A DNA stretch of 35,525 nt from Comamonadaceae bacterium. GTDB taxonomy: Bacteria > Pseudomonadota > Gammaproteobacteria > Burkholderiales > Burkholderiaceae_C. A program made the translations under genes and the position numbers. The stretch lies in NCBI GenBank assembly GCA_027491035.1, contig JAIXWZ010000083.1, positions 1 through 35,525 of the forward strand. The letters run 5' to 3'. Shown here one piece after another: positions 5,074-25,234 of this stretch (within the stretch, counting starts at the first letter, position 1; every line of letters begins with the position of its first letter). The notes under the pieces were generated by a model. It was not told where the DNA came from, searched no databases, and saw nothing but the letters and a program-made list of their open reading frames with translations.

Positions 5074-5099
5074 GGTGGTCTCCTGGAAGGGTCGGGGTT

Positions 5100-7479: not shown

Positions 7480-8178
7480 TTAGCGAGACGGCTTGAGCCG
7501 TCCGAGCACTTCATCGGTGGTTTGCACATCGCCAAAGCTGAAGATAAAGCCCGACAGGCAGGTTTCGTGCTCCTCGACCGTGTTGGCCGAGCAGGCATCC
7601 GAGACCATGAGGGTGCGGTAGTTGAGCATCATGGCGTCGCGCGCGGTGGACTCGCAGCACACGTTGGTGGCAGTGCCGGCTATGAGCAGGGTGTCGACGC
7701 CCTGGGCCTGAAGCCGCTCGTGCAGCTCAGAAGAGCCCTGGATGAAGGCGCTGTAGAAATACTTGCGAACCCGCCAGTCGTCGGCCTGCGGTTCGAGGTC
7801 GGCATACAGCTCATGGCCCGGATCGCCCTCGGCCATGCAGCGGCTGCGCAGGGCGTAGCCCTGCGGGCTCGACAGTTCCTGGTGAAAGTGCGACCAGGTC
7901 CGATCGGACTCGGGCGCGTAGGTGTTGAGAATCCAGACCACCGTGCCACCGGCGGCTCGCACCCCACGGGCCAGGCGGTTGATGGTCGGGCAGGTGGCTG
8001 CTGCGCCCGGCACCCAAGCATGTCCGCCGCCTTTTTGCACGAAGCTGTTTTGCATGTCGACGACCACCAAGGCGGTTCGACGGGCCTCGAGCTTTTCAAA
8101 GGCATGCAGCCGACCCCGGCGTGCGACCACTCTTTGCACCAGTTCAGGGGAGGGGATATAGGGACGCATCTCGGTCAT
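7480..8178 (-). CDS. Cysteine hydrolase, isochorismatase superfamily (RutB-like)
   Basis: 232 residues with the Asp-Lys-Cys triad of the superfamily: D41 in VVVDMQNSF, K139 in VRKYFYSAF and the nucleophile C174 in TATNVCCESTARDA. The ATNVC-ESTARD motif and the length resemble RutB (ureidoacrylate amidohydrolase) more closely than true isochorismatases, so C-N bond hydrolysis of an amide or ureido compound is more likely than vinyl-ether cleavage. It is the last gene of the GntR-SDR-transporter operon, about 60 bases after the SDR gene, with a hairpin between them. With the allantoinase-like protein in the same operon it could release ammonia from a ring-opened amide. The substrate is not determined. 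Confidence 0.88.
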   Translation of the reverse strand: MTEMRPYIPSPELVQRVVARRGRLHAFEKLEARRTALVVVDMQNSFVQKGGGHAWVPGAAATCPTINRLARGVRAAGGTVVWILNTYAPESDRTWSHFHQELSSPQGYALRSRCMAEGDPGHELYADLEPQADDWRVRKYFYSAFIQGSSELHERLQAQGVDTLLIAGTATNVCCESTARDAMMLNYRTLMVSDACSANTVEEHETCLSGFIFSFGDVQTTDEVLGRLKPSR

Positions 8179-8210
8179 GTCGGGCCTTGGTAAGACTTAG
8201 AGCAAGAAGG

Positions 8211-8234
8211 GCAGCCGCACCTCGGCGCGGCTGC
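8211..8234 (-). terminator. GC-rich hairpin, possible terminator or attenuator after the SDR gene
   Basis: GCAGCCGC at 8211-8218 pairs perfectly with GCGGCTGC at 8227-8234 around an 8-base loop. It lies just after the SDR stop. In the minus-strand transcript the following bases are CCTTCTTGCTCT, only partly U-rich. Read on the plus strand the hairpin is followed by GTTTTC. It may reduce transcription into the last gene of the operon or stabilise the upstream mRNA. Confidence 0.4.
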
Positions 8235-8238
8235 GTTT

Positions 8239-9009
8239 TCAGGGCATGTAGGTGCCGCCATTGATCGGCAAGGTCTGCCCGGTGATGTAGGCCGCCGCCG
8301 GGCTGATCAGGAACAAGATCGGATCGCTCACGTCCTGGGGCTGCGCAATGCGGCCCATGGGCACCATCCGGGTGTAGGCCGCCTGGTCCAGATTGGACGG
8401 AGCCGACTCGTCTGATCGGCCCGTGCCGCCGCGCAGGAAGGCGGTGTCGACGGCACCCGGGGCCACCGCATTGACCCGCACCCTTGGCGCGTTCTCCAGT
8501 GCCAGTTCCTTGACGAGCAGGATCATGCCGGCCTTGGCCGGACCGTAGGCACCGAACATGGGCCTGGCCCAGGCACCCAGACCCGAGGCCACATGCAGCA
8601 AGCTGGCACGCTCGCTGCGGTGCAGATGGGGCAGGGCCGCGCGCGAGATAAAGAAGGCCGCATCCAGGTTGCCGCGGATGATGTCCTGCCAGACCTCGGT
8701 GGCCGTCTGCTGCAAGGGCTTGGCCTCGCTCATATAGCCCACCAGATTGACGCAGGCATCCATTCCGCCCAGCTCAGTGGCAGCCTGCGCCATGGCGGCA
8801 TCGACCGAATCGGGGTCTTTGGCGTCCATGGCGATGCAGGGCATCTGAGCGCCGTGGCGCTCGATCGAGGCGGGCAGATCAAGCACCCGAACCTGCGCGC
8901 CCAGCGCGGCGGCCTGGCCGGCCAGATGCCGGCCGATGCCGCCGCAGCCGCCGGCCAGCACCAGGCGCAGGCCGGCGAAGGCCTGCGCGCTCCACACAGA
9001 GGTGCTCAT
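8239..9009 (-). CDS. Short-chain dehydrogenase/reductase
   Basis: 256 residues from the ATG at 9007-9009, chosen because it sits in a TGATG overlap with the stop of the binding-protein gene; an ATG four codons upstream is also possible. The Rossmann nucleotide motif is AGGCGGIG (residues 19-26), the structural Asn is N88 in VNLVG, and the catalytic set is S142, Y155 and K159 (YGPAK). The C-terminal YITGQTLPINGG is typical of classical SDRs. It should oxidise or reduce an alcohol/ketone with NAD(P). Tight coupling to the LIV-type transporter genes links it to metabolism of the imported compound, but the substrate is unknown. Confidence 0.9.
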   Translation of the reverse strand: MSTSVWSAQAFAGLRLVLAGGCGGIGRHLAGQAAALGAQVRVLDLPASIERHGAQMPCIAMDAKDPDSVDAAMAQAATELGGMDACVNLVGYMSEAKPLQQTATEVWQDIIRGNLDAAFFISRAALPHLHRSERASLLHVASGLGAWARPMFGAYGPAKAGMILLVKELALENAPRVRVNAVAPGAVDTAFLRGGTGRSDESAPSNLDQAAYTRMVPMGRIAQPQDVSDPILFLISPAAAYITGQTLPINGGTYMP

Positions 9010-10187
9010 CACTTGCTGCATGCGTCGGGTGCGTGGCTGTCAAGCAGCGTGCGCTGGCCGTTGCGGATGCGGATGATGTAGGCGGGCAACTCGGAGTCGC
9101 CGTCCCGGCCAAAGCAGATGTTGCCGGTCACGCCGGTGATCTGCGTGCTGCGCAGCGCATCGCGAAGAGCCACACGCTCGGCCTTGACCTTGGCCTGATC
9201 GCCCGTCGTGCCTGCGCGGCGCATCGCGTCGGCAAACACGTACACGATGTCATAGGCCGAAGCATCAACGTGGTGCGCGCCCGATTTGTTGACGCCGCGC
9301 TTCTTGGCTTCCTCCAGGAACTTGCGCTCGAAGGTGCGGGTGCGCTCGTTGGTGTCCCACCAGTACCAAGACACGAAGGTCGCGCCTTCGCCGTCGCTGC
9401 CCAGCACCTTGGCGATATCGGGATCGGCGAAGATTTGCGCGCCAATGAGCATGCTGTTGTGGCCCTGGCGGCGCAGCTCTTTCATGACCTTGGCCGCGCC
9501 TTCGGGCAGGCCTGCAAAAGCGAGAACGGCCGGCGTATTGCCCTTGAGCTTGGTGATGTGGGGCGACAGGTCGGTGGCGTTGGTGGCAAAGCCTTCGGCC
9601 GGGATCACCATCTTCCAGCTGTTGGCCTCCAGCAGGTTGGGCATCCAGCCAGCCAGCGCCTTGCCGACAAACTCGTCGCTGGGAAACATCACCGCAGCGG
9701 TTCTGTTGCTCACGCCGCCTTTGGTGCCCATGGTCTTGAGCAAGCGGCCAAACTGCTTGCCCTCGTCTTCGGTCACGCGCAAGGCCCACTTGCGGTCCTT
9801 GGTCAGGCCAGGGGCGGAGGCGGCATTGGGAATCTGCACGATCTCCAGTCGCTCGCCGGCGGCAAAGGCCACCTGCGCCTCTTGGCTTGAGAAGGGGCCG
9901 ATGATGCCCACGGCCTTGGCATCTTCGGTGAACTTTTGCGTCGCCACTTGCGCGTTCTTGGGGTCCCCGCCGGTGTCAAATTTCTCGATGCGGATCTTGC
10001 GGCCGTTGACGCCGCCGGCTGCATTGATCTCGGCCACGGCGATGTCCACCGAGATCTCGGTGCCCACCGCCACGCCTGAGTAGCGCCCGGTTTTGGCATG
10101 CGACAGGCCCAGCACAATGTCTTGCGCCCAGGTGGGGGTGGCCAGGCCGGCAGCCAGGCTGGCAATGACCAACAAACGTTTTTTCAT
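9009..10187 (-). CDS. LIV-type ABC transporter periplasmic substrate-binding protein
   Basis: 392 residues from the ATG at 10185-10187, preceded by GGAG at 6 bases; an earlier reading adds nine residues ahead of the signal peptide and is rejected. A Sec signal peptide (MKKRLLVIASLAAG, cleavage probably after TWA) is followed by the type-I periplasmic fold: DIVLGLSHAKTGRYSG, EINAAGGVNGRKI, then GIIGPFSSQEAQV and GAQIFADPDI. This is the Leu/Ile/Val-binding family, which in Burkholderiales often binds aromatic acids, amides or urea rather than amino acids. It follows the two ATPase genes, so all five transporter parts are together. The ligand is presumably the substrate of the surrounding catabolic genes. 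Confidence 0.93.
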   Translation of the reverse strand: MKKRLLVIASLAAGLATPTWAQDIVLGLSHAKTGRYSGVAVGTEISVDIAVAEINAAGGVNGRKIRIEKFDTGGDPKNAQVATQKFTEDAKAVGIIGPFSSQEAQVAFAAGERLEIVQIPNAASAPGLTKDRKWALRVTEDEGKQFGRLLKTMGTKGGVSNRTAAVMFPSDEFVGKALAGWMPNLLEANSWKMVIPAEGFATNATDLSPHITKLKGNTPAVLAFAGLPEGAAKVMKELRRQGHNSMLIGAQIFADPDIAKVLGSDGEGATFVSWYWWDTNERTRTFERKFLEEAKKRGVNKSGAHHVDASAYDIVYVFADAMRRAGTTGDQAKVKAERVALRDALRSTQITGVTGNICFGRDGDSELPAYIIRIRNGQRTLLDSHAPDACSK

Positions 10188-10206
10188 CAGCAACTCCATA
10201 GAAGTT

Positions 10207-10908
10207 TCAAGCACCCAGATAAGCCTGCGTCATGCGCGGATCGCTCGCGAGCGACGAGGCTTGGCCTTGCAGAACCAGCCGCCCAAGTTCAAGCACATAG
10301 GCCCTGTGGGCGGTAGCCAGGGCCATGTGTGTGTTTTGCTCGACCAGCAAGATGGACAGGCCATCGCGGTTGAGCTCGGTGATCAGTTGGAACAGCGCCT
10401 TGACCAGCAAGGGGCTCAAGCCCAACGAGGGCTCGTCGAGCATCATCAGGGACGGTCGGCTGAGCAGGGCCCGGCCAATGGCCAGCATCTGCTGCTCGCC
10501 GCCTGAGAGCACCGAGGCGGGCATGTCGCGCCGCTGCGCCAGATTGGGAAAACGCTCATAGATCGCCTCAATTTCCCGGCTGGCATCGTCACGCCGGGTG
10601 TAGGCACCCATCAGCAAGTTGTCGTGCACGCTCAAGCTGACAAAGATCTGGCGCCCCTCGGGCACCAGCACCAGGCCTTCGCTCACCCGCCGGGCGGCGC
10701 TGTGGCCCAAGATGGAGTGGCCCTTGAACTGCACCTGCCCGCCGGCGGGCTTGACCATGCCTTGCAGCGCTTTGAGCAAGGAGCTCTTGCCCGCGCCGTT
10801 GGCACCCAGCACGGTAACGATCTCGCCGGCCTCGATGTTCAGCGACATGCGCTGCACCGCCTGGGTGCGGCCGTAGTGGACCGACAACTCTTGCACATCA
10901 AGCAGCAT
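10207..10908 (-). CDS. livF: LIV-type ABC transporter ATP-binding protein, LivF-like
   Basis: 233 residues from the ATG at 10906-10908, preceded by GGAGAG; the start overlaps the LivG-like end by 11 bases. It carries Walker A GANGAGKSS, the signature LSGGEQQ, Walker B LMMLDEP and the H-loop region LLVEQN, in the order and length of LivF. The final QAYLGA is also typical. It should pair with the LivG-like ATPase at the inner face of the membrane and energise import through the LivH/LivM-like permeases. The symbol indicates family position only; the transported compound need not be an amino acid. Confidence 0.93.
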   Translation of the reverse strand: MLLDVQELSVHYGRTQAVQRMSLNIEAGEIVTVLGANGAGKSSLLKALQGMVKPAGGQVQFKGHSILGHSAARRVSEGLVLVPEGRQIFVSLSVHDNLLMGAYTRRDDASREIEAIYERFPNLAQRRDMPASVLSGGEQQMLAIGRALLSRPSLMMLDEPSLGLSPLLVKALFQLITELNRDGLSILLVEQNTHMALATAHRAYVLELGRLVLQGQASSLASDPRMTQAYLGA

Positions 10909-11656
10909 GGTGGCTCTCCATCGCATCGGGCGTGCCCAGATAGGCTTCGAGTACCGCGGGATCTTGCTTGACCGCTTCGGGTGTGCCCTCGAAGATCTTG
11001 CGGCCGAAGTTAAGCACCACCACATGGTTGCACAACTGGCGCACAAAGGGCATGTCGTGCTCGACCACCAGCAAGGTGATGCCGCTGTCAGAGACCGATT
11101 GCAGCAAATGGCGCAAATCGTCGGTCTCCACCGGGTTCAGACCGGCTGCGGGCTCATCGAGCAGCAAGATCTTGGGCTGGGCCATGAGCGCGCGCACGAC
11201 CTCAATGCGTTTTTGGATGCCGTAGGGCAGATCGGCCACCACCTGGCCCGGGTAGGTGTCCAGCCCGGCCCGCTCGAGTGCCGCACGCGCCCGAGCGCTG
11301 GCCTTGCGGCTGCCCACCAGCTCCCAAGGCCGGCTGAAGTGGTGCTCGCCGAGCATCACGTTCTCCAGCGTCGACAGGTGCGGCATGAGCCGAATGTTCT
11401 GAAACGAGCGGGCGATGCCGCAGCGCACGCGATTGGCCACCGACATGTGGGTGATGTCCTGGCCGGTGGCGCTGATGCGGCCCTGGTCGATCGGATAGAC
11501 GCCCGAAATCAGGTTAAAGACGGTCGATTTGCCCGCTCCGTTGGGGCCGATCAGGCCGGTGCGGCTGCCCGTGGGCACACCAAAGCTGACATCGTCGATG
11601 ACCTTGAGGCCGCCGAAGGACTTGCTCACGCCGTCCAGTTGCAGGGCGATGCTCAT
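10898..11656 (-). CDS. livG: LIV-type ABC transporter ATP-binding protein, LivG-like
   Basis: 252 residues. Walker A is GPNGAGKST and Walker B is ILLLDEPAAGLNP. The usual LSGGQ signature is replaced by the segment LPYGIQKRIEV, a variant common in LivG homologues, followed by VVEHDM with the switch histidine. The RSFQNIRLMPHLSTLENV stretch around the Q-loop is characteristic of this subfamily. It overlaps the LivM-like gene upstream by 4 bases and the LivF-like gene downstream by 11, so the ATPases should be made in fixed ratio. Confidence 0.93.
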   Translation of the reverse strand: MSIALQLDGVSKSFGGLKVIDDVSFGVPTGSRTGLIGPNGAGKSTVFNLISGVYPIDQGRISATGQDITHMSVANRVRCGIARSFQNIRLMPHLSTLENVMLGEHHFSRPWELVGSRKASARARAALERAGLDTYPGQVVADLPYGIQKRIEVVRALMAQPKILLLDEPAAGLNPVETDDLRHLLQSVSDSGITLLVVEHDMPFVRQLCNHVVVLNFGRKIFEGTPEAVKQDPAVLEAYLGTPDAMESHHAA

Positions 11657-12534
11657 GCGCTGGCCTCCTGTTTGCGCCGCCCGGGCGAGGTCCAGCGCTC
11701 GATCATCGTGCGGGTGATCACGCCCTGTGGCCGAAGCATCATGATCAGCACCACGGCCACGCCAAAGACGATGTAGCGCCCGCCCTCCAGAAACTTGAGC
11801 GACGGGTCGACGGTTGAGAGCTTGCGCAGCGCCTCGGGCACCAGGGTAAAGAAGACCGCGCCGAACAGCGGACCCCAGACCGTCTGCGTGCCGCCCATGA
11901 GCACATACAGCAGCACATAGATGCTAAAGAGCACGCCGGTCGACTGCACATCGATGAAGTTGAACTGGTGCACCAGCAAGCCGCCGCCCAAGCCGCCGAT
12001 GGCCCCGCCGATGGTCAGCGCCAGCACCTGTGTCATGCGCAGGTGCACACCAAACAGGTGAGCCACGCTCTCATCGTCATGGATGGCACGAACCGACAGA
12101 CCAAATCGGGTGCGCATGAGCCAGGCCACGAAGACCACGGTCCCGATGGCACAGGGCACCACCACCGGCAGGCCCGCGTAAGCCATGACCGACAGGCCCG
12201 CGGCGCCGCCCAGCGCCGGGATGTTGAGCAAGATGCCGCCCACCACCTCTGCAAAGGCAAAGGTGGCCAGCACCATGTAGATGCCGCGTGTGCGCAGGAT
12301 CGGAAAGGCAATCAAAAAACCCACCAGCGCGGCCATGGCCGAGCCCAGCACGATGGCCGGCGCCAGTGCAAGATCGTAGATCGAGGTCAGGGCACCGGCG
12401 GTGTAGGCGCCCACCAGCACGAAGCCAGCTGCGCCCAGGTTGAGCAGACCGGCCGAGCCGGGGATGAACACCGAATAGGCCACGATGACATTGATGGCCA
12501 GCATCGCAAGCAGGCCGCTGAGATAGCCGGACAT
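11653..12534 (-). CDS. livM: LIV-type ABC transporter permease, LivM-like
   Basis: 293 residues from the ATG at 12532-12534, in a TGATG overlap with the LivH-like stop. The protein is strongly hydrophobic with about eight to ten membrane spans. It shows the family landmarks: SAGLLNLGAAGFVLVGAY near the N terminus, the FGLSVRAIHDDESVAHLFGV cytoplasmic loop that contacts the ATPase, and MGGTQTVWGPLFGA late in the protein. It should form the inner-membrane channel with LivH. The C terminus ends in a short charged tail. Confidence 0.93.
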   Translation of the reverse strand: MSGYLSGLLAMLAINVIVAYSVFIPGSAGLLNLGAAGFVLVGAYTAGALTSIYDLALAPAIVLGSAMAALVGFLIAFPILRTRGIYMVLATFAFAEVVGGILLNIPALGGAAGLSVMAYAGLPVVVPCAIGTVVFVAWLMRTRFGLSVRAIHDDESVAHLFGVHLRMTQVLALTIGGAIGGLGGGLLVHQFNFIDVQSTGVLFSIYVLLYVLMGGTQTVWGPLFGAVFFTLVPEALRKLSTVDPSLKFLEGGRYIVFGVAVVLIMMLRPQGVITRTMIERWTSPGRRKQEASA

Positions 12535-13448
12535 CAGAACTTGCCCTTTCCGATTTTGTTGTGGCCAAACAAGCCCTGCGGCCGAATGACCAAAATGAGC
12601 AGCAGCAAGCCCCACACCGGGATCTTCTCAATCTCGGAGCCAAATGTGCTGATGGCCAGCACCTTGACCAGACCGACCAGCAGACCGCCAGCAATGGCGC
12701 CCCAGATATTGCCCAGCCCGCCGAGCACCATGCCCGCAATGGCGTCGGTGGCAATCGCATCGCCCATGAAGGGGGTGACGGTGCCGTAGCTGGCCGCATA
12801 CAAGATGCCGGCCAGCGCCGACAGCACCCCGGTGATGACAAAGACCACCGGCACGATGCGCTGCACCTCCACACCCATGAGCGTGGCGGCATTGGGGTTC
12901 TCGGCAATCGAGCGCAGCGCCCGGCCCAGGCGGGTGCGCTCCAAGATGGCCGTCAGCAGCGCCACCAGCACAATGGCCGTGGTCAGGCTCAGCAGGTGGG
13001 GGATGCCAAAGATCAGTCCGCCGATTTCCAGCGTCGTGTCCTTAAAGGGCAGCTCAAAACGCTGCGGATCGCTGCTCCACAGGGCCATGGCCATGTGCTC
13101 GAAGACGATCAGAAAACCCAGGGAGCTCACCAGGGGCAGCGCGTGCTCGGTGGCATCGCCAAAGCGCGCCTTCATGTAGCGGTAGGTGAAGCGCTCGATC
13201 AGCAGCGAGGCCAAGATCACCACCGCGATGCCGGCCATGGCCGCATACGTCCAGTGCCAGCCCAGACCGAAGATGTGGGGGCCGGCGGTCGACAGCGCCC
13301 AGGTCACCATGGCCGCGAGCATGAACAGGGCCGGGATGGTGAAGTTCAGGAAGTTGAGCATCCCGATGGTCAGCGTGAAGGCCACGGCCACAAAGGCCAG
13401 GATGCCTCCCAGCATGAGCCCGTTGACGATCTGTTGCAGCAGTTGCAT
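12534..13448 (-). CDS. livH: LIV-type ABC transporter permease, LivH-like
   Basis: 304 residues from the ATG at 13446-13448 with GAGG upstream. Hydrophobic, with multiple membrane segments. The landmarks are NGLMLGGILAFVAVAFTLT and GMLNFLNFTIPAL at the start, the ATPase-contact loop TRLGRALRSIAENPNAATLM, and GMVLGGLGNIWGAIAGG near the end. It starts only a few bases after the stop of the polysaccharide-deacetylase-like gene, so catabolic and transport genes are transcribed together. Confidence 0.93.
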   Translation of the reverse strand: MQLLQQIVNGLMLGGILAFVAVAFTLTIGMLNFLNFTIPALFMLAAMVTWALSTAGPHIFGLGWHWTYAAMAGIAVVILASLLIERFTYRYMKARFGDATEHALPLVSSLGFLIVFEHMAMALWSSDPQRFELPFKDTTLEIGGLIFGIPHLLSLTTAIVLVALLTAILERTRLGRALRSIAENPNAATLMGVEVQRIVPVVFVITGVLSALAGILYAASYGTVTPFMGDAIATDAIAGMVLGGLGNIWGAIAGGLLVGLVKVLAISTFGSEIEKIPVWGLLLLILVIRPQGLFGHNKIGKGKF

Positions 13449-13456
13449 GGTCGGCC

Positions 13457-14359
13457 TCAGGTGATGTGGGTGTGGTGGTTGGCCATGTACCACTCAGCGA
13501 TTTCCTCGCGCGTGGTCCACCAGACGTCAGGGTGGCCTTTGGCATGGGCCAGGAACTCACGAAAGCAGGGCATGCGGTGCGGATGTCCCGAGACGTGGGG
13601 GTGCAGGCCCACGCTCATGATCCGGCCGCTGTCGGCGCCGTCGCGATACAACTCATCGAACTGGTCTTTGAGCATGCGCGCCGCATCCCAGGTGGTCATG
13701 GCGCGGCGGTGGAAGAAGGTGAAGTCGTTGACCTCAATCGTGTAGGGCACATTGACGATGGGGCCCGAAGGCGTTTGAATCAGGTAGGGCTGCTCGTCGT
13801 TCATGTAGTCGCAAAAGAACTTCAAGCCCCGTTCGGCCAGCAGGTCGGGCGTGTTGGGCGTGCCGCGCAGCGAGGACGACAGCCAGCCCTTGGCCTTGCG
13901 GCCCACCACTTTTTCGTAGACCGCCAGCGTGGCGTCGATCACGGCGCGCTCCTTGTCGATGTCGAAGGTGTAGCGGGTGAGCAGCTCGCCTTGCTCGTAG
14001 TTATGGGGCACCACTTCCCAGCCGCGCTCTTTGGCGTAGTCGATGATTTCCGGCCGCTCGAGCATGGTCTTGGCGTTGGCGGTGCAGGAAAACGGCACGC
14101 CCATCTCGTCAAAGAGCTTGAACAGGCGCCAGACCCCCACGCGCTGGCCGTACTCGCGCCAGGTGAAGTTGGGAAAGTCGGCCACATTGCCCGGCAGCAT
14201 GTCGGGCAGCATGGGCGGGCCGCCCGCGTAATTGGGCTCGGTGCCTTCGCGCACCAGGTCCCAGTATTCGCAGTTCATGGTGATGATCACCGCCAGCTTT
14301 TTCCCGCCGGGCCAGCGCAGCGGTTGGCGTTTGATCAGGGGGGACCAGGGATAGTGCAT
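13457..14359 (-). CDS. Polysaccharide deacetylase family protein, allantoinase/imidase-like (PuuE type)
   Basis: 300 residues from the ATG at 14357-14359, with AGAGG upstream. It starts with the PuuE-like WPGGKKLAVIITMNCEYW strand and has REYGQRVGVWRLFKLF, H119 in VPHNYEQGE and the histidine-rich GLHPHVSGHPHR (residues 251-261), the probable metal ligands and active-site region of the NodB fold. The known relatives with this N terminus are PuuE allantoinase and bacterial cyclic-imide hydrolases rather than sugar deacetylases, so hydrolysis of a C-N bond in a ring is the favoured activity. It contains a NDEQPY motif (residues 187-192) also found in the second domain of the fusion protein at 31146-33038. 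No signal peptide, so cytoplasmic. The substrate is inferred only by family. Confidence 0.88.
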   Translation of the reverse strand: MHYPWSPLIKRQPLRWPGGKKLAVIITMNCEYWDLVREGTEPNYAGGPPMLPDMLPGNVADFPNFTWREYGQRVGVWRLFKLFDEMGVPFSCTANAKTMLERPEIIDYAKERGWEVVPHNYEQGELLTRYTFDIDKERAVIDATLAVYEKVVGRKAKGWLSSSLRGTPNTPDLLAERGLKFFCDYMNDEQPYLIQTPSGPIVNVPYTIEVNDFTFFHRRAMTTWDAARMLKDQFDELYRDGADSGRIMSVGLHPHVSGHPHRMPCFREFLAHAKGHPDVWWTTREEIAEWYMANHHTHIT

Positions 14360-14378
14360 ATCAAGCCTCTTGAGGTTT

Positions 14379-15269
14379 TCAATGGGTGCCGCTGTGCCAG
14401 CGCAGGCCCTGCGCATGGCTGACGATGCGACCGGCCACCGGGCTGGGAAAGTGGGCCGCCATCAGCAGTGTGGCGGTGTCGGCGATCTCATGAACCAGCT
14501 GGTGGCGAACCGCGCTGGCGGCCTTCGGATCGTGGCAAAAGCGTGATGACCACGACAGGTCAAGCAACTGCACCGGCGTGTGCAAGATGTCGCCGGTAAA
14601 CACCGCATGATCGCCCTGGCTGCGGGCATGCAGCACGCAAGAGCCGGGCGTGTGCCCATGGGCGGGCTCGAGCCTCACACCGGGCTCGAAGTCGTGCCCG
14701 CCCTCGACCATGAGCGCTTGACCCGCATCGACCACCGGCAGCACGCTGTCGGCAAACGAGCCGTGATTGGGCGCCGGCCTGCCTTGTGCCAGGGCTTGCC
14801 GATGCTCGGCCTCCCAGTGGCTGTATTCCGTCTGCGAGAACACATAGCGGGCCTTGGGAAAGGTCGGCACCCAGGCCCCGTTTCGCAGTTCGGTGTTCCA
14901 GCCCACATGGTCGGCGTGAAGGTGGGTGCAGCACACAAAGTCGATCTGATCGGGGCGCAGGCCCACCTGGGCCAGTGCCTCCATATAGGCAAACTGCTGG
15001 TGGTGCCAACTGGCGCGAAGCGGGCGCTCTTTGTGGTTGCCCACGCAGGTGTCGATCAAGAAATTGTGCTGCGGCGTGCGCAGCACAAAGCTGTGAAAGC
15101 TCATCATGAGCTGGTGCTCGGCGTTGACAAAACGCGGCATCAGCCAGTCGGCCTGCTCCTGTACACGAGCCATGTCCGCATTGGGCAGCACAAAGTCCAC
15201 GCCAGAAAAAGCGCCCTCGGTCTCGACCACGCGGTCGATGGTGAATTGGCCGATGCGCTGGGTTTTCAT
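14379..15269 (-). CDS. Metallo-beta-lactamase-fold hydrolase
   Basis: 296 residues. The metal-binding motif THLHADHVGW gives H116, H118, D120 and H121; the further ligands are the histidine of AHGHTPGS, the Asp of VFTGDILH and the histidine of AAHFPSP. A complete binuclear zinc (or iron/zinc) site is therefore present. The pattern around HADHVGWN resembles the subgroup that includes lactonases and organophosphate hydrolases. No signal peptide is seen, so it is probably cytoplasmic. It lies between an SDR and the imidase-like gene, so a lactone, lactam or ester intermediate is a reasonable guess, but quorum-signal degradation cannot be excluded. Confidence 0.88.
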   Translation of the reverse strand: MKTQRIGQFTIDRVVETEGAFSGVDFVLPNADMARVQEQADWLMPRFVNAEHQLMMSFHSFVLRTPQHNFLIDTCVGNHKERPLRASWHHQQFAYMEALAQVGLRPDQIDFVCCTHLHADHVGWNTELRNGAWVPTFPKARYVFSQTEYSHWEAEHRQALAQGRPAPNHGSFADSVLPVVDAGQALMVEGGHDFEPGVRLEPAHGHTPGSCVLHARSQGDHAVFTGDILHTPVQLLDLSWSSRFCHDPKAASAVRHQLVHEIADTATLLMAAHFPSPVAGRIVSHAQGLRWHSGTH

Positions 15270-15286
15270 GCGTGCTGACCTTGGCC

Positions 15287-16117
15287 TCACATGATGGCCG
15301 GCAACTCGTGTGCCGGGCTGCGGGCCTTTTCCGCTGCCTGCTCGCCGTCCATGCCCTCGGGCCACAGACGAGCCACGTAGCGCTGTCCGGTGACCTCGGT
15401 GCCGGCCTGGCCCATGAGCCAGACGATGGGCGCGCGCATCAAGGCCGGGGAGAGCAAGTTGCCGTCGGCGCCGCGCCGGCCCGAGCCACTGCCGGGCAGC
15501 AGCCGGGTGTCGGCCGCCCCGCCGGGCAGCAGCACATTGACGCTCACGCCGGTGCCTTGCAAGTCCTTGGCCCAGACCACGCTCATGGCCTCCAGGGCCG
15601 CCTTGCTCGGCCCATAGGGGCAGTAGCCGGTTCGCACCATGGTCACCTGGCTGGTGGAGATATTGACCACTCGACCCGAGCCCTGCGCCACCATGGCCGG
15701 CACGCAGGCCCTGGCCATGAGAAAGGCACCGGTCACGTTGGCATCGACGATGTTGCGAAAGCCTTGTGGGTCGGCTTTCCAGAACAAGGCCGGCTCGGTG
15801 TTGAAGGTCTGGCTGATCTCGAGCATGCCGCGACCGGCGTTGTTGATCAGAGCGTCGATGCGGCCAAAGGCCTCGAGGCAGCGGCTGGCCACCTGCTGGC
15901 ACTGCGCCCAGTCAGATACATCGGCGATCACTGCTATGGCCCGCGGTGTATCGAGGCCCGCATTCCATCTTGCGCATGCCGCCTCGAGCTCAGCGCTTTC
16001 GCGCGCGCCAGTGACCACCACACGGTGTCCGGCTTGCAGCAGGGCGTCGGCCATCTCCCAGCCCAGGCCGCGGCCACCGCCGGTGATGATGATGGCTTTC
16101 GAGGTTTGATCGTTCAT
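15287..16117 (-). CDS. Short-chain dehydrogenase/reductase
   Basis: 276 residues from the ATG at 16115-16117; a GTG three codons upstream would overlap the regulator stop and is less likely. Motifs are ITGGGRGLG (residues 11-19), INNAG (91-95), catalytic S154 or S156, Y168 and K172 (YGPSKAA). It is a classical SDR, NAD(P)-dependent. The last 40 residues, after TGQRYVARLWPEG, are not part of the usual SDR end and are rich in Ala and Glu. It is the first structural gene behind the GntR regulator, so it is probably induced by the pathway substrate. Confidence 0.9.
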   Translation of the reverse strand: MNDQTSKAIIITGGGRGLGWEMADALLQAGHRVVVTGARESAELEAACARWNAGLDTPRAIAVIADVSDWAQCQQVASRCLEAFGRIDALINNAGRGMLEISQTFNTEPALFWKADPQGFRNIVDANVTGAFLMARACVPAMVAQGSGRVVNISTSQVTMVRTGYCPYGPSKAALEAMSVVWAKDLQGTGVSVNVLLPGGAADTRLLPGSGSGRRGADGNLLSPALMRAPIVWLMGQAGTEVTGQRYVARLWPEGMDGEQAAEKARSPAHELPAIM

Positions 16118-16122
16118 GGGGT

Positions 16123-16794: not shown

Positions 16795-16818
16795 GGGTGG
16801 GGTTTGAGTCTTCGAGCG

Positions 16819-16841
16819 ACTATAAGTGATTGTGTACAAAT
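16819..16841 (-). promoter_or_regulatory. Promoter and candidate GntR operator in front of the regulator operon
   Basis: On the minus strand TATAGT (16819-16824) is a good -10; no strong -35 is seen at 17 bases. Just upstream of the -10, at 16830-16838, is TTGTGTACA, part of ATTGTGTACAAAT with a TGTACA core. This resembles the TTGT-N2-ACAA type sites of FCD-domain GntR proteins. The same 9-mer occurs once more, in front of the divergent FAD monooxygenase gene. Binding here would block RNA polymerase, fitting autorepression. Confidence 0.5.
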
Positions 16842-16981
16842 CAAGCCATAACAATCATCAGATCAGGGGCATGCTCAGGGTTTGCACTGAGTGGATTCCG
16901 GGTTTTCCCTCTGAGAAATTCCCGGTGATCGACCTCCGATGAAGGGCATCGAGATAAGAGTGTTGCCGGTTTTTCGGAAAG

Positions 16982-16990
16982 TTGTGTACA
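16982..16990 (+). promoter_or_regulatory. Second copy of the TTGTGTACA box, candidate operator of the FAD monooxygenase operon
   Basis: The 9-mer TTGTGTACA lies 30 bases before the ATG of the monooxygenase and 152 bases from the identical box in the regulator promoter. A TTAGAT at 17001-17006 may be the -10, which would place the box just upstream of it. The -35 is not clear. The matching pair in a divergent promoter is the main evidence that the neighbouring GntR protein binds here. Confidence 0.45.
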
Positions 16991-17020
16991 GTTGGCCGTC
17001 TTAGATTGGAGCCTCAATTG

Positions 17021-18214
17021 ATGAAACCGCATATCTTGATCGCCGGAGCCGGCCCCGTAGGCATGGTCAGCGCACTGGTCCTGGGCAAAGCTGGCATCGC
17101 CGTCACCTTGCTCGAGGGCGCGCCGGGTTTGAGCATGGACCTCAGGGCCTCGACCTTTCATCCGCCGACGCTCGATATGCTGGCGCGCTACGGCCTGTCG
17201 CAGACCATCATTCCCCAGGGATTGGTTGCGCGCTACACCCAGCAGCGCGACCGCAGCGAGGGGGTGATCGCCGAGTTCGACATGGATCTGCTCAAGAACG
17301 ACACCGAGCACCCCTTTCGGCTGCAGTGCGAGCAGTGGAAGCTGACCGAGGCCATCAAAGACCAACTGGCCCAGCTGCCCCACGTCAAGATCCTGTTTAA
17401 CGCCAAGGTCGAGTCGGTCAGTCAAACCGCCGACAAGGTGCAGCTGGTGGCCCAGCAAGAGGGCGAGAGCCTGCGCCTGGAGGGCGATTATTTGATCGGT
17501 GCCGACGGCGCCTGGAGTGCGGTGCGCCGCAGTGTGGGCATCGAGTTCGAGGGCTACACCTATCCCGAGCGCTTCCTGGTGATCTCCACCGACTTCGAGT
17601 ACGCCAATCACCTGCCCAAGCTGTCTTATGTGAACTACTGCTCAGACCCCAAAGAGTGGTGCGTGCTGCTGCGCGTGCCCACTCTCTGGCGCGTGCTGTT
17701 TCCCACCCGCCCCGAGGAGAGCGACGAGGAGGTGCTCACCGACGAGGCGGTGCAAGCGCGTTTGCAAAACCTGCTGGCGCAGCCACAGCCCTACAAGACC
17801 ATCCACCGCACCCTCTACAAGGTGCACCAGCGGGTGGCCAAAGAGTTCCGTCGGGGCCGCGTGCTGCTGGCCGGCGACTCGGCCCACATCAACAATCCGC
17901 TGGGCGGCATGGGCATGAACGGCGGTGTGCACGACGCCTTCAACCTGTCTGAAAAACTGCTGGCCGTGATCCAGCAGGGGCAAGATGTGAGCCTGCTCGA
18001 CCGCTATGAGCGCCAGCGCCGCACCATCGCCATTGAATACATCAATGCCAGCACGGCGCGCAACAAGGCTGAAATTGAAGAGCGCGACCCGGTGCAGCGC
18101 AAGAAGACGCAAGACGCCCTGCGGGCCACCGCTGCCGACCCGGCAGCAGCGCGTGCTTATCTGCGCAAATCGTCCATGCTCGACGCCCTGACCCGGGCCG
18201 AGGCCATCGCATGA
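17021..18214 (+). CDS. FAD-dependent monooxygenase, class A flavoprotein (PHBH/MHPCO fold)
   Basis: 397 residues from the ATG at 17021, with GGAG upstream; an earlier TTG would lie inside the operator. The dinucleotide motif is IAGAGPVGMVSALVLGKAG (near residue 7), the middle motif is GADGAWSAVRR and the FAD ribityl motif is GRVLLAGDSAHINNPLGGMG. Length and motifs fit single-component flavin hydroxylases such as p-hydroxybenzoate, 6-hydroxynicotinate or methylhydroxypyridinecarboxylate oxygenases, which hydroxylate or open aromatic rings using NAD(P)H and O2. It is the first gene of the four-gene plus-strand unit, and its stop overlaps the next start (ATGA). The following amide- and acid-processing enzymes make an N-heteroaromatic substrate attractive, but this is inference. 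Confidence 0.9.
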   Translation: MKPHILIAGAGPVGMVSALVLGKAGIAVTLLEGAPGLSMDLRASTFHPPTLDMLARYGLSQTIIPQGLVARYTQQRDRSEGVIAEFDMDLLKNDTEHPFRLQCEQWKLTEAIKDQLAQLPHVKILFNAKVESVSQTADKVQLVAQQEGESLRLEGDYLIGADGAWSAVRRSVGIEFEGYTYPERFLVISTDFEYANHLPKLSYVNYCSDPKEWCVLLRVPTLWRVLFPTRPEESDEEVLTDEAVQARLQNLLAQPQPYKTIHRTLYKVHQRVAKEFRRGRVLLAGDSAHINNPLGGMGMNGGVHDAFNLSEKLLAVIQQGQDVSLLDRYERQRRTIAIEYINASTARNKAEIEERDPVQRKKTQDALRATAADPAAARAYLRKSSMLDALTRAEAIA

Positions 18215-19119
18215 GCGACAAAATCGTTCGCGGCATCTCCCGCGTCAGCCACGCCGAGCGCCGCGCGCAACTGGCCGCTCGCCTTCGCGAAAAGCGCCTC
18301 CTGTCGGCCCCCGGTGTTTTTGAAATGGTGTCGGCCAAGATTGCCGATCGCATGGGCTTTGAGGCGCTCTACATGACCGGCTACGGCACGGTGGCCTCTT
18401 ACCTGGGCCTGCCCGATGCGGGCCTGGCCAGCTACTCTGACATGGTCAACCGGGTGCAGCAGTTCGCCAGCATCACCGCCACGCCCATGATCTGCGACGG
18501 CGACACCGGCTACGGCGGCCTGCTCAATGTGATGCACACGGTGCGTGGCTATGAGGCCGCAGGCGCTTGCGCGATTCAGCTCGAAGACCAGGAATTCCCC
18601 AAGAAATGCGGCCACATGCTGGGCCGGCGCGTCATCGACGCGCAGGCCATGGCCGACAAGATCCGGGTGGCCGTTGAAAGCCGCAGCGACCCCAACTTTC
18701 TCATCATTGCCCGCACCGATGCGCGCACCACCCATGGCCTGGACGAGGCCCTGCGGCGCGCTGAAATGTATGCCCGCGCCGGTGCCGATTTGCTGTTTGT
18801 CGAAAGCCCCGAGTCGGTCGAAGAAATGGCCCGCATCGGCAAGACCTTTGACCTGCCCCTGGTGGCCAATATGGTTGAGGGCGGCCGCACGCCGGTGCTC
18901 AGCCGGCAAGAGTTGCAGTCGTTGGGCTACCGCCTGGCCATCTTTCCGGCCGCTGCCTTTTTGGCAGCCGGCGCCGCCTTCGAAGGGGTGTACCGCACCA
19001 TACAGGAAAACGGCTCGACCGTGGGGGCCAGCACGCCGCTGTACGAGTTCCAGAAGTTCTCTGAACTGATGGGCTTTGACTGGGTGGCGCAATTTGACAG
19101 CGAACATTCGCAAAACTGA
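18211..19119 (+). CDS. Isocitrate lyase/PEP mutase family protein (methylisocitrate or dimethylmalate lyase-like)
   Basis: 302 residues with the TIM-barrel landmarks of the superfamily: LLSAPGVFEMVSAKIADRMGF, the metal-binding DGDTGYGG (D96, D98) and KKCGH (residues 131-135), whose Cys is the catalytic base of true lyases. The lyase Cys argues for C-C bond cleavage (as in methylisocitrate or 2,3-dimethylmalate lyase) rather than phosphonate chemistry. It should split a substituted malate/isocitrate-type acid into a keto acid such as pyruvate and a dicarboxylate or carboxylate. It is coupled to the monooxygenase by a 4-base overlap and lies 16 bases before the cysteine hydrolase. The exact acid is unknown. 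Confidence 0.9.
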   Translation: MSDKIVRGISRVSHAERRAQLAARLREKRLLSAPGVFEMVSAKIADRMGFEALYMTGYGTVASYLGLPDAGLASYSDMVNRVQQFASITATPMICDGDTGYGGLLNVMHTVRGYEAAGACAIQLEDQEFPKKCGHMLGRRVIDAQAMADKIRVAVESRSDPNFLIIARTDARTTHGLDEALRRAEMYARAGADLLFVESPESVEEMARIGKTFDLPLVANMVEGGRTPVLSRQELQSLGYRLAIFPAAAFLAAGAAFEGVYRTIQENGSTVGASTPLYEFQKFSELMGFDWVAQFDSEHSQN

Positions 19120-19135
19120 GCAGGAGGGCGCGATC

Positions 19136-19756
19136 ATGGACAAACACGCCATCTACAAGCACCAAGGCTTGGGCGGCACCTCCGGCATTGGCCGGCGCTG
19201 CGCCTTGGTGCTGGTTGATTTCGTCAATGGTTTTGTCGACTTTGACCAACTCGGCGGCCCGCACATCCTGGATGCGGCCAACGCCACCGTGCCCTTGCTC
19301 GCGCATTTTCGGGCGCAGCAACTGCCTATCGCGCACACCCGGGTGGTGTTCGCAGACGATGGCTCTAACCACAACGTCTTTGCCCTGCGCGTGCCGCCGC
19401 TGCAAAAGCTCACCGAAACCGCGCCAGGCTCGCAGATCGTGCCGCAGCTGACGCCGCAGCCCGGCGAGTGGGTGATCCGCAAGCAGTCGGCCTCGGCCTT
19501 TTTTGAAACCGGCCTGGCCGGCTGGCTGCTGCAGCGTGGGGTGGACACCGCAGTGATTGTGGGCTGCACCACCAGCGGCTGCGTGCGCGCCAGCGTGGTC
19601 GACAGCCTGCAGCACAACCTGCGCACCGTGGTCATCAGCGACTGCGTGGGCGACCGCGCCATCGAGCCGCACGAGGCCAATTTGTTTGACATGCAGCAGA
19701 AATATGCGGACGTGATGACCCGCGACGAGTTCATCGCACAACACACTAGGAGCTGA
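19136..19756 (+). CDS. Cysteine hydrolase, N-carbamoylsarcosine amidase/maleamate amidase-like
   Basis: 206 residues from the ATG at 19136, with AGGAGGG upstream. The triad is D28 (VLVDFVNGF), K116 (VIRKQSAS) and C149 in GCTTSGCVRASVVDS. That last motif with the downstream GDRAIEPHEANLFDMQQKY is characteristic of N-carbamoylsarcosine amidohydrolase and is also seen in maleamate amidohydrolases of nicotinate degradation. It should release ammonia (or carbamate) from an amide in the cytoplasm. It sits between the lyase and a maleate-isomerase-like gene, an order reminiscent of the last steps of nicotinate catabolism, although the other nic genes are absent. It is a different subfamily from the RutB-like hydrolase at 7480-8178. 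Confidence 0.9.
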   Translation: MDKHAIYKHQGLGGTSGIGRRCALVLVDFVNGFVDFDQLGGPHILDAANATVPLLAHFRAQQLPIAHTRVVFADDGSNHNVFALRVPPLQKLTETAPGSQIVPQLTPQPGEWVIRKQSASAFFETGLAGWLLQRGVDTAVIVGCTTSGCVRASVVDSLQHNLRTVVISDCVGDRAIEPHEANLFDMQQKYADVMTRDEFIAQHTRS

Positions 19757-19759
19757 CAC

Positions 19760-20503
19760 ATGGCCGACCACCTGGGCTACCGACAAAAATTTGGCGTTCT
19801 CGGACCGTCGACCAACACCATCGTCCAGCCCGACTTTGACGACCTGCGCCCGGTTGGCGTGACCAACCACTACAGCCGCATTGCGATTCCGAACAACCCG
19901 GTCAATGACAACGAGAGCTTTCTCAAGCTGGTTGACAACATCAACAAGGCCACGCTCGATGCCATTGATGTGCTGCGCACCTGCGAGATGGACTACATGA
20001 TCATGGGCATGTCGGCAGCGACCTTCTGGAATGGCCGTGAGGGGGCCGCGCAGTACATCAAGATGATGGAAGACCGTGCTCAGGTCAAGGTCAGCTGCGG
20101 CTCCTTTGGCACCGAGGCGGCGCTCAACCTCTACAAGGCCAAACGCATCGCCTTCTTGTCACCTTACTTTGAAGTGGCCAACAAGGAGGTGCGGCGTTTC
20201 TACAGCGACTGCGGCTTTACCGTGGTGCGCGACATCTGCCTAGAGCGGCCCAGCCCCGTACAGATTGCCCACACCACCGACGAAATCTGCCGCCAGACCC
20301 TTAAAAAGCTCGACGGCGACGATGTCGATGCCATTGTGCAGGTCGGCACCAACCTGTCGATGATTCGCCTGGCCGCCGCAGCCGAAGTCTTTCTGGGCAA
20401 GCCGGTGATCGCCATCAACACCGCCACCTACTGGCACGCGCTGCGCGCGCAGGGCATCAACGACAAGGTGGCAGGGTTTGGCAACTTGATGGAATGCCAT
20501 TGA
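19760..20503 (+). CDS. Arylmalonate decarboxylase/maleate isomerase-like protein (Asp/Glu racemase superfamily)
   Basis: 247 residues, start 3 bases after the preceding stop with AGGAG upstream. The fold is recognisable from KFGVLGPSTNTIVQPDFDDL, IMGMSAATFWNG, LSPYFEVANKEVRRFY and the GKPVIAINTATYWHALR end. From recalled family alignments, arylmalonate decarboxylase has one catalytic Cys in its second half and maleate isomerase and racemases have two. Here the first position is G83 (GMSAATFW) and the second is G196 (QVGTNLS), so both are glycine. Y136 matches a conserved active-site Tyr. The protein may therefore catalyse decarboxylation, isomerisation or hydration by another mechanism. It closes the four-gene operon. 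Confidence 0.82.
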   Translation: MADHLGYRQKFGVLGPSTNTIVQPDFDDLRPVGVTNHYSRIAIPNNPVNDNESFLKLVDNINKATLDAIDVLRTCEMDYMIMGMSAATFWNGREGAAQYIKMMEDRAQVKVSCGSFGTEAALNLYKAKRIAFLSPYFEVANKEVRRFYSDCGFTVVRDICLERPSPVQIAHTTDEICRQTLKKLDGDDVDAIVQVGTNLSMIRLAAAAEVFLGKPVIAINTATYWHALRAQGINDKVAGFGNLMECH

Positions 20504-20548: not shown

Positions 20549-20911
20549 TCAAGACTTGAGGGCGGTCTGTTGGGGCTTGATGCCCAACACCTTGCACAGC
20601 GCCCGCTCAATCTCGGCCAAGTCGGTTTCACCCATGCTGCAGACATAGCCGGCCAGCCGGGTCTTGTCGATGGCCCTGATGTGTTCTGTTCGCACTTTCG
20701 AACTGGCGCTGACTGAGGGCGTTGCAACCAGCAGCGGGAATACTGGTGGCGTGTCTGTGGTTGTCAGCGGCAAGACCACCACGGTGCGGCGGTGGTCATT
20801 GACCTCCCTGACCGACAGCACCACGCAGGGGCGGCGCTTGGCCATCTCCGATCCGCGACCTGGGTCCAGTTGCACCCAATGGACCTCTCCGCGCAGGATG
20901 CTCGCTGTCAT
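20549..20911 (-). CDS. MazF/PemK-family toxin (endoribonuclease)
   Basis: 120 residues. The N terminus RGEVHWVQLDPGRGSEMAKRRPCVVLS has the MazF landmarks (G-E-V/I-W, D-P-x-x-G-x-E, the RP(C)VVLS strand), and VVVLPLTTTDTP is the following conserved segment. Family members cut mRNA at short motifs. The start overlaps the antitoxin stop by 4 bases (ATGA), the normal antitoxin-first order. The gene converges with the plus-strand AMDase-like gene across a 45-base gap. The toxin is full length with no sign of decay. Confidence 0.9.
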   Translation of the reverse strand: MTASILRGEVHWVQLDPGRGSEMAKRRPCVVLSVREVNDHRRTVVVLPLTTTDTPPVFPLLVATPSVSASSKVRTEHIRAIDKTRLAGYVCSMGETDLAEIERALCKVLGIKPQQTALKS

Positions 20912-25217: not shown

Positions 25218-25234
25218 GGTGGTGCTTTCGGTGT

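What the first reader, a model, noticed from the sequence alone, without database searches (positions are those of the whole stretch)
7480..20503. Candidate undescribed pathway for a nitrogen-containing ring or imide, built from two divergent operons
Between the RutB-like hydrolase and the AMDase-like gene there are two cysteine hydrolases of different subfamilies, an allantoinase/imidase-type NodB-fold protein, an MBL-fold hydrolase, two SDRs, a flavin hydroxylase, an ICL/PEPM-family lyase, an AMDase/maleate isomerase-like protein, a full LIV-type importer and a GntR regulator. Several C-N cleaving enzymes, a ring hydroxylase and a C4-acid enzyme recall nicotinate or cyclic imide catabolism, but the defining nic genes (nicA/B, nicX) are absent and the combination matches no pathway I can name.
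Basis: partly seen in the sequence, partly recalled or inferred. Interest (0 to 1): 0.75.

Follow-up and report, generated by a model that had tools for sequence, protein, structure and literature searches.

The report
Undescribed ring-breakdown gene module
A set of bacterial genes that very probably works as one regulated pathway for breaking down a compound, likely a nitrogen-containing ring; neither the compound nor the job of one key protein, a relative of known enzymes that has lost their catalytic residues, is known.

Summary
The genes named are present and intact. Neighbourhoods show a conserved plus-strand core (flavin monooxygenase FMO, ICL/PEPM-type lyase, cysteine hydrolase Iso2, AMDase-fold protein) and a frequent minus-strand accessory arm (GntR, SDR2, MBL, PuuE-like hydrolase, LIV importer, SDR1). 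The PuuE-like gene sat beside an intact FMO in 12 of 15 sampled genomes (one FMO remnant, two contig ends); whole sets recur, reshuffled, in alphaproteobacteria. The divergent promoter region keeps two TTGTGTACA boxes in 18 distinct loci (one box a near match in two) while the rest has drifted; the same box precedes a paralogous PuuE-SDR-FMO-AMDase cluster in 3 of 5 genomes. This supports one regulated pathway, though the core often lacks the arm. The 'AMDase/maleate isomerase-like' protein has that fold but neither catalytic cysteine (0 of 84 sequences); the RutB-like gene is at most a lineage-specific addition. A dedicated LeuCD-type hydratase, absent from the window, is a recurrent partner and points to an (alkyl)maleate to (alkyl)malate to C-C lyase end. 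Best reading: FMO-initiated breakdown of an alkylated N-heterocycle or cyclic amide. Substrate and step order are inference; tetrapyrrole-derived maleimides are the boldest candidate.

The parts
8239..9009 (-). SDR1, short-chain dehydrogenase (accessory arm)
   Evidence: PF13561/PF00106; after the SBP gene in L032, L132, L133, L134, L136
9009..10187 (-). LIV-type substrate-binding protein
   Evidence: PF13458
10207..10908 (-). LivF-type ATPase
10898..11656 (-). LivG-type ATPase
11653..12534 (-). LivM-type permease
12534..13448 (-). LivH-type permease
13457..14359 (-). PuuE-like NodB-fold cyclic-amide hydrolase
   Evidence: TIGR03212 166.9 bits, below cut-off; phmmer to PuuE 3cl6 129.8 bits; AF2 model pLDDT 83.2, Foldseek best 3cl6/1z7a TM 0.78-0.80
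14379..15269 (-). MBL-fold hydrolase, lactonase-like
   Evidence: PF00753; below cut-off to YtnP, AidB, 4-pyridoxolactonase models; H123, H125, D127, H128 at >=97% in 20 sequences
15287..16117 (-). SDR2, short-chain dehydrogenase
   Evidence: PF00106
16123..16794 (-). GntR/FCD regulator
   Evidence: PF00392 + PF07729
16830..16838 (+). operator box 1 TTGTGTACA, 35 bp upstream of gntR
16982..16990 (+). operator box 2 TTGTGTACA, 30 bp upstream of the FMO gene
17021..18214 (+). FMO, FAD-dependent group A monooxygenase (core)
   Evidence: PF01494; PnpA 239 bits, HspB 188 bits
18211..19119 (+). ICL/PEPM-superfamily C-C lyase (core)
   Evidence: PF13714; KKCGH in 56 of 56, Leu251 in 55 of 56 aligned sequences
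19136..19756 (+). Iso2, isochorismatase-fold cysteine hydrolase (core)
   Evidence: PF00857; D28, K116, C149 at >=97% in 61 sequences
19760..20503 (+). AMDase/maleate-isomerase-fold protein without catalytic Cys (core)
   Evidence: PF17645; AF2 pLDDT 94.6; Foldseek 2xed TM 0.87-0.88; M84 and G196 at the Cys sites
24288..25217 (-). HMGL-type lyase, possible adjunct
   Evidence: NF004283 349 bits, above cut-off; beside the core in L049/L134, HMGL homologues at 39-42% in L111, L119, L148
25235..26434 (-). family III CoA-transferase, possible adjunct
   Evidence: PF02515; nearest NCBIfam succinate-glutarate and mesaconate CoA-transferases, below cut-off

Best explanation
One GntR-controlled catabolic module for an alkylated N-heterocycle or cyclic amide. 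Shown: the gene set, its co-conservation, the two conserved promoter boxes, loss of the catalytic cysteines in the AMDase-fold protein, and conserved hydrolase, lyase and flavoenzyme motifs. Inferred: the LIV system (or, in relatives, perhaps a TctC-type one) imports the compound; FMO hydroxylates the ring with FAD, NAD(P)H and O2; SDR and MBL adjust the oxidation level and open a lactone where needed; the PuuE-like enzyme hydrolyses a ring C-N amide bond; Iso2 frees ammonia from the remaining amide, leaving a cis-butenedioate ((alkyl)maleate); a LeuCD-type hydratase (dedicated in some relatives, presumably housekeeping in this genome) makes an (alkyl)malate; the ICL/PEPM enzyme splits it by retro-aldol cleavage into a 2-oxoacid and a short acid. 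The AMDase-fold protein, encoded within 2.5 kb of FMO in 55 of 55 loci with both, probably acts next to FMO by a cysteine-free reaction that is not known; tautomerase, decarboxylase or ring hydrolase are the candidates.
For: Co-occurrence: the window-type set is complete and contiguous on the Allorhizobium pseudoryzae plasmid (L129) and complete or nearly so in Agrobacterium rosae L121, Pseudolabrys L112 and L034, in different orders. In 41 loci with >=9 kb on both sides, 29 with FMO hold ICL 22, Iso2 21, LeuC 12, PuuE 7, LivH 7, MBL 5; the 12 without FMO hold ICL 1, Iso2 1 and none of the other four. FMO and AMDase lie within 2.5 kb in 55 of 55 loci that have both. From the PuuE side: 13 of 87 genus genomes, plus one more in a 120-genome family sample and one more in a 398-genome phylum sample: intact FMO within 10 kb in 12 of 15 (only 47% and 42% identical in G179 and G501), an FMO remnant in 1, contig ends in 2. 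Dedicated LeuC (>=79%) in 6 of 87 genus genomes, the query's own included, all 6 on the FMO contig 2-11 kb away. Promoter: of 214 intergenic positions 15 are invariant in 18 distinct loci, all inside or within 2 bp of the two boxes. ICL: Leu where PrpB has Arg.
Against: The core occurs without PuuE, SDR or MBL in many betaproteobacteria, so those steps cannot be essential to every version. The PuuE/LIV/SDR/MBL arm occurs on a Roseomonas marmotae plasmid with no FMO, AMDase or ICL match in the 29 kb read (chromosome not searched). One FMO copy in G212 has no AMDase in the 20 kb read (L138). Only one LeuC, 52% identical and housekeeping-like, was found in the window's 90%-complete genome. A nitrogen ring is argued from C-N hydrolase folds only; isochorismatase and PuuE folds have other substrates. 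The role of the PrpB Arg is recalled, not from a call, and 4iqd, a closer hit than PrpB, keeps an Arg there. Many loci are related, so counts are not independent.
Confidence: 0.5

Rival explanations
1. Hydroxypyridine route like that of Aspergillus nidulans nicotinate breakdown: FMO makes a trihydroxypyridine, whose imide tautomer is opened by the PuuE-like enzyme and deamidated by Iso2, giving a 2-oxo- or 2-hydroxyglutarate-type acid.
For: HxnX/HxnV monooxygenases, HxnW SDR, HxnM imidase and HxnN amidase carry out this order in the fungus (PMC9304392, passages); the FMO is nearest to PnpA and the pyridine enzyme HspB.
Against: Does not need a LeuCD hydratase or an ICL/PEPM lyase; the lyase is among the most conserved partners and LeuC is recurrent. 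No old-yellow-enzyme gene in the module (Pfam of its genes).
Confidence: 0.2
2. Two pathways under one regulator: the core handles one substrate, the PuuE/LIV/SDR/MBL arm imports and processes another.
For: Core without the arm is common; arm without the core on a Roseomonas marmotae plasmid.
Against: In the PuuE-centred sample the arm is beside an intact FMO in 12 of 15 genomes and beside a remnant in one more; gene orders differ between lineages while the sets stay together.
Confidence: 0.15
3. Carbon-only aromatic or lactone pathway: the C-N hydrolase folds act on esters or lactones, e.g. a butenolide oxidised to citraconate.
For: MBL is lactonase-like; the lower end fits citraconate/citramalate chemistry.
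Against: Iso2 keeps Asp, Lys and Cys (the amidohydrolase triad by recall); the PuuE-like fold is nearest to an allantoinase; no ring-cleavage dioxygenase was recognised among the recurrent neighbours, of which only some were annotated by HMM.
Confidence: 0.12

Closest known systems
hxn nicotinate regulon of Aspergillus nidulans (PMC9304392; passages read)
   Same: Order of tools: flavin monooxygenase, SDR, PuuE-related imidase, amidase.
   Different: No alkene reductase in the module; here a LeuCD-type hydratase, an ICL/PEPM lyase and a Cys-less AMDase-fold protein; different amidase family (isochorismatase against FAAH-like HxnN).
Dimethylmaleate hydratase (DmdAB) / 2,3-dimethylmalate lyase end of nicotinate fermentation (recalled)
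   Same: Aconitase-family hydratase followed by an ICL/PEPM lyase.
   Different: FMO start, so oxygen-dependent; substrate not known.
Maleate cis-trans isomerase / arylmalonate decarboxylase
   Same: Fold (TM 0.87-0.88 to 2xed, 0.79 to 3dg9).
   Different: Both catalytic Cys positions replaced (M84, G196); 0 of 84 aligned sequences, window included, have Cys there (0 of 43).
PuuE allantoinase
   Same: Fold and family.
   Different: 166.9 bits against a cut-off of 424.6; other gene context.
PnpA / HspB monooxygenases
   Same: Nearest solved relatives by sequence (239 and 188 bits).
   Different: Substrate unknown; different neighbours.
Itaconate degradation lyase RipC and mesaconate CoA-transferase
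   Same: Nearest model for CitE, and among the nearest for CaiB, in or near the paralogous cluster.
   Different: Below their cut-offs.

Membership tests
Maleate isomerase / AMDase | Asp/Glu racemase-type fold | tested here: met
   AF2 pLDDT 94.6; Foldseek 2xed TM 0.87-0.88
Maleate isomerase / AMDase | one or two catalytic Cys | tested here: not met
   M84 and G196 at the Cys positions; Cys in 0 of 43 and 0 of 84. The Cys-bearing paralogue in L129 and L121 served as yardstick.
PuuE allantoinase | curated score | tested here: not met
   166.9 against 424.6 bits
PuuE-type NodB-fold hydrolases | fold | tested here: met
   3cl6/1z7a TM 0.78-0.80
Cyclic imide hydrolase (HxnM type) | imide hydrolysis | not testable with these tools
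   No characterised imidase sequence at hand; 3qbu, the fold relative of HxnM, scores below PuuE (46 against 130 bits; TM 0.70 against 0.78-0.80)
RutB | curated score | tested here: not met
   Iso1 87.2, Iso2 43.0, cut-off 377.95
2-Methylisocitrate lyase PrpB | curated score | tested here: not met
   266.3 against 354.4 bits
2-Methylisocitrate lyase PrpB | Arg for the distal carboxylate (recalled) | tested here: not met
   Leu at the position in 55 of 56
ICL/PEPM lyases with catalytic Cys (petal death protein, dimethylmalate lyase) | Cys loop KKCGH | tested here: met
   56 of 56
ICL/PEPM lyases with catalytic Cys (petal death protein, dimethylmalate lyase) | activity on alkylmalates | not testable with these tools
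   needs enzyme assay
nic nicotinate pathway | NicX ring-cleavage dioxygenase (M29 fold, recalled) | tested here: not met
   PF02073: no match in 7 of 9 genomes, the window's (90% complete) among them; over cut-off in 1, below it in 1
nic nicotinate pathway | NicA/NicB hydroxylase | not tested
   genome not searched
hxn nicotinate pathway | old-yellow-enzyme HxnT | tested here: not met
   none among the module's genes; rest of the genome not searched

The most novel reading that the evidence does not exclude
This cluster and its paralogous, box-sharing sister are parallel branches of a bacterial route for pyrrole or maleimide fragments of tetrapyrroles (chlorophyll, haem, bilins): a shared upper tool kit (FMO, Cys-less AMDase-fold enzyme, SDR, PuuE-like imidase) opens methylated rings, and separate lower ends (Iso2 + LeuCD + alkylmalate lyase; or ACAD + FAS1-type hydratase + CitE lyase) deal with rings that differ in saturation or side chain. 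The AMDase-fold enzyme would be a new, cysteine-free catalyst of its superfamily.
Probability: 0.1. Interest if true: 0.85.

Novelty: new variant of a known kind. Interest (0 to 1): 0.6.

Why it matters
A gene module found in beta-, alpha- and gammaproteobacteria (record titles) appears to be a regulated pathway with no name and no known substrate. It contains a widespread branch of the maleate isomerase/AMDase fold with its catalytic cysteines gone, so the annotation 'arylmalonate decarboxylase' that several such genes carry in plasmid records is probably wrong for this branch. If the substrate is a methylated maleimide or pyrrole, it would make the question of how bacteria mineralise tetrapyrrole fragments testable; maleimides and hematinic acid are reported from senescent leaves and lake sediments (PMC7318184, passages).

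Tried and rejected
Considered and set aside. (1) Maleate isomerase step: no catalytic Cys, and a LeuCD hydratase would take the cis acid anyway (by recall of the family). (2) Methylisocitrate lyase: below cut-off, Arg replaced by Leu. (3) Riboflavin/lumichrome catabolism (PMC12746152, outline and first of six parts): different enzymes. (4) Citrazinate/isonicotinate route: the ten papers listed of 72 were mostly about carbon dots. (5) Aromatic decarboxylase in L110 and L126: a recalled impression, not borne out by HMM. (6) Iso1 and the carotenoid oxygenase, AMP ligase and PaaN-like genes to its left as general members: Iso1 only in four near relatives; the others beside it in L032, L133 and L136 (as far as the contigs reach) but not in L034, L129, L132, L134, L137 or L140. 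(7) Literature: searches found no paper with four of the named terms; the listings of 20 (20 of 1,846 papers), 44, 45, 73, 74, 77 (15 of 942), 80 and 100 showed no description of such a cluster; only open-licence PMC papers are held. (8) The expectation that the paralogous cluster always carries the box: absent in G204 and in G023 (L153, L039). (9) The claim that the paralogous cluster has no GntR of its own: wrong on recheck; a 30-31% homologue lies about 8 kb upstream of its PuuE gene in G000 and G013, so the box may be read by either regulator. For that reason I lowered the novel case from 0.12 to 0.10.

The 19 intergenic regions were picked by hand and hold one duplicate (L080/L145); one search repeats the count on 18. 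In one search translations with stops or under 80% length were dropped and identical ones merged; one search dropped those with stops or not over 200 aa. In some searches the CaiB query was delimited wrongly (7 stops); it was corrected.
Full report
WHAT IS THERE. Two divergent operons meet at 16795-17020. Minus strand: gntR, SDR2, MBL hydrolase, PuuE-like hydrolase, livH, livM, livG, livF, substrate-binding protein, SDR1, then Iso1. Plus strand: FMO, ICL/PEPM lyase, Iso2, AMDase-fold protein, with overlapping or nearly touching ends. No RutB, PuuE allantoinase or PrpB call is justified.

ONE PATHWAY? A scan of genome contigs with eight AMDase-fold sequences kept the 80 best of 553 relatives, a capped list. 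FMO (>=40% identity) is present in 55 of 80 and within 2.5 kb of the AMDase gene in all 55. In the 41 loci with at least 9 kb on both sides, the 29 with FMO hold ICL 22, Iso2 21, LeuC 12, PuuE 7, LivH 7, MBL 5; the 12 without FMO hold ICL 1, Iso2 1, and no PuuE, LivH, MBL or LeuC. Thresholds were set after a first look, flanks are short for the far genes, and loci are related. The full set, reshuffled, stands on the Allorhizobium pseudoryzae plasmid within about 16 kb (SBP, LivFGMH, FMO, AMDase, PuuE, GntR, aldehyde dehydrogenase, SDR2, MBL, second GntR, a Cys-bearing AMDase paralogue, ICL, Iso2, SDR1), and in Agrobacterium rosae L121; most of it in Pseudolabrys L112, and in L034 (the same contig as L074, a MAG labelled Polaromonas) with LeuCD. 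Novosphingobium capsulatum has SDR, Iso2, PuuE, ICL, FMO and AMDase in about 7 kb plus a P450.

From the PuuE side: matches at E<=1e-60 in 13 of 87 genomes of the genus and 2 of 120 of the family, and at E<=1e-70 in 2 of 398 of the phylum; the window's genome is in all three, so 15 distinct genomes. A full-length FMO match lies within 10 kb in 12 (47% identical in G179, 42% in G501), an FMO fragment in one (G208, a decayed block), and two contigs end too early (G022, G217). Against this: a Roseomonas marmotae plasmid carries PuuE, LIV, SDR and MBL with no FMO, AMDase or ICL match in 29 kb; of the 18 genus genomes with FMO at >=70% identity, 12 have a PuuE match and 6 do not (G214, G023, G209, G219, G207, G196), though in G023 a PuuE gene is cut by the contig end; and G212 has a second FMO copy with no AMDase in the 20 kb read (L138). 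So the core is FMO-ICL-Iso2-AMDase and the other arm is a frequent accessory. Iso1 follows SDR1 only in near relatives (L032, L132, L133, L136) and gave no match in L034, L129, L131, L134, L137 or L140, which hold SDR1.

A PARTNER MISSING FROM THE WINDOW. Clustering the ORFs of the 80 loci showed a LeuC-type hydratase subunit in 15 loci, with LeuD in several (HMM check of three LeuC and one LeuD). In the genus, a LeuC at >=79% identity to that of L034 occurs in 6 of 87 genomes (G015, the query's own, and G196, G208, G212, G207, G179), always on the FMO contig, 2-11 kb away; 77 of 87 genomes have some LeuC match at E<=1e-100, and apart from these six the matches are at 47-53% identity, as in the window's genome (52%). 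This ties hydration of a cis-diacid to the pathway and, with the Cys-loop ICL/PEPM lyase, gives a hydratase-lyase end like that of dimethylmaleate (recalled). The lyase has Leu at the place of an Arg in PrpB (1o5q) and in 4iqd, and of Tyr in petal death protein, the best PDB hit (alignments; 55 of 56 homologues Leu); by recall that Arg holds the third carboxylate, so an alkylmalate is a likelier substrate than methylisocitrate.

REGULATION. TTGTGTACA occurs in the gntR-FMO intergenic region of 18 of 18 distinct hand-picked loci, twice in 16; in the other two one copy is a near match, TTGTACACA or TTGTATACA. Aligned, 15 of 214 window positions are invariant, 13 inside the boxes and 2 within 2 bp of them (with the duplicate row left in, 17, of which 16 inside). 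The boxes lie 35 and 30 bp from the two start codons. In 12 genus genomes the 9-mer occurs 1 to 8 times (reversed word: 0 to 6); four genomes without PuuE or FMO match have 3 to 7 copies, so the word itself is not rare. But in G000, G013 and G180 one of the few copies lies about 20 bp before the PuuE gene of a paralogous cluster (PuuE ~30%, SDR, acyl-CoA dehydrogenase, FAS1-type hydratase, FMO 47-48%, AMDase ~35%; CitE in G013 and G180 but not G000; a CaiB upstream). The matching clusters in G204 and G023 have no exact box; G204 also lacks the three CoA enzymes. A GntR homologue (30-31%) lies about 8 kb upstream of that PuuE in G000 and G013, so the shared box speaks for the same or a related regulator, not surely for the window's own. 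CitE there is nearest to RipC of itaconate degradation (188 against 375 bits).

THE AMDase-FOLD PROTEIN. The model (pLDDT 94.6) is nearest to maleate isomerase (2xed, TM 0.87-0.88) and AMDase (3dg9, TM 0.79). In the Allorhizobium cluster a second family member has YACTAGS and ITCTDF; aligned to it, the window protein has M84 and G196 in place of the two Cys. No Cys stands at either place in 43 or 84 aligned sequences; T18, N19, T20, N36, H37, G83, S85, Y136, G196, T197, N198, N220, Y224, W225 and R229 are invariant in the 43. Its reaction must differ from the known ones. It is the most interesting single part.

MECHANISM. See Best explanation. FMO is nearest by sequence to PnpA and HspB, both, by recall, para-hydroxylases that displace a ring substituent. 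PuuE-like: nearest to PuuE allantoinase rather than to the HxnM-like 3qbu. Iso2: D28, K116, C149 conserved. The order FMO, SDR, imidase, amidase is that of the fungal hxn pathway (PMC9304392, passages), but the lower end differs. Step order, substrate and the role of MBL and SDR1 are inference.

SUBSTRATE. The lyase implies a branched malate, hence an alkylated ring. Methylated maleimides or pyrroles from tetrapyrroles fit this and the presence of a parallel cluster; such maleimides are cited as found in senescent leaves and lake sediments (PMC7318184, passages; that study itself found hematinic acid but no maleimides in its leaves). No call tests this; I give it 0.10.

LITERATURE. Ten searches of open-licence PMC papers showed no description of this cluster in their listings, which were capped.

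Noticed in passing
window 31131-33038 (+): 635-aa protein that is a tandem fusion of two PuuE-type domains (33.6% and 28.8% to the PuuE-like protein of the module), between an MmgE/PrpD gene and an ABC importer with an NlpA-type lipoprotein. In G013 the matching DNA (93% and 85%) runs on across the border of two fetched pieces.
   Followed up: partly
window 24288-29644 (-): HMGL lyase, CaiB CoA-transferase, PALP enzyme, Sua5/YrdC-like protein and amidase in a row; HMGL and CaiB also sit beside the core in L049 and beside AMDase without FMO in L085, HMGL in L111, L119 and L148. Possibly a second amide or imide pathway.
   Followed up: partly
L044, L043, L152 (paralogous cluster): Second PuuE-SDR-FMO-AMDase cluster with acyl-CoA dehydrogenase and FAS1-type hydratase (CitE lyase in some), carrying the same box in 3 of 5 genomes looked at.
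   Followed up: yes
L129 20746-21462, L121 16675-17391, L109 259-993, L127 6867-7589: A second AMDase-family protein with both catalytic Cys lies in or beside some alphaproteobacterial clusters.
   Followed up: partly
L087, L111, L119, L128: A histidinol-dehydrogenase-family protein recurs near LeuC or ICL in four loci; confirmed by HMM for L128 only.
   Followed up: partly
window 20549-20911 (-): MazF/PemK-family gene just after the AMDase-fold gene.
   Followed up: no
L140 8305-9158: Decayed copy of the block in G208: Iso2 homologue and a 174-bp FMO fragment beside a PuuE/LIV arm, while a full block with LeuCD is on another contig (L139).
   Followed up: partly
window 3628-6800 (-): Carotenoid-oxygenase-family gene and PaaN-like aldehyde dehydrogenase, next to an AMP-dependent ligase; also beside Iso1 in L032, L133 and L136, not in L132 or L134. 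A 30% carotenoid-oxygenase homologue lies about 13 kb from PuuE in L130.
   Followed up: no
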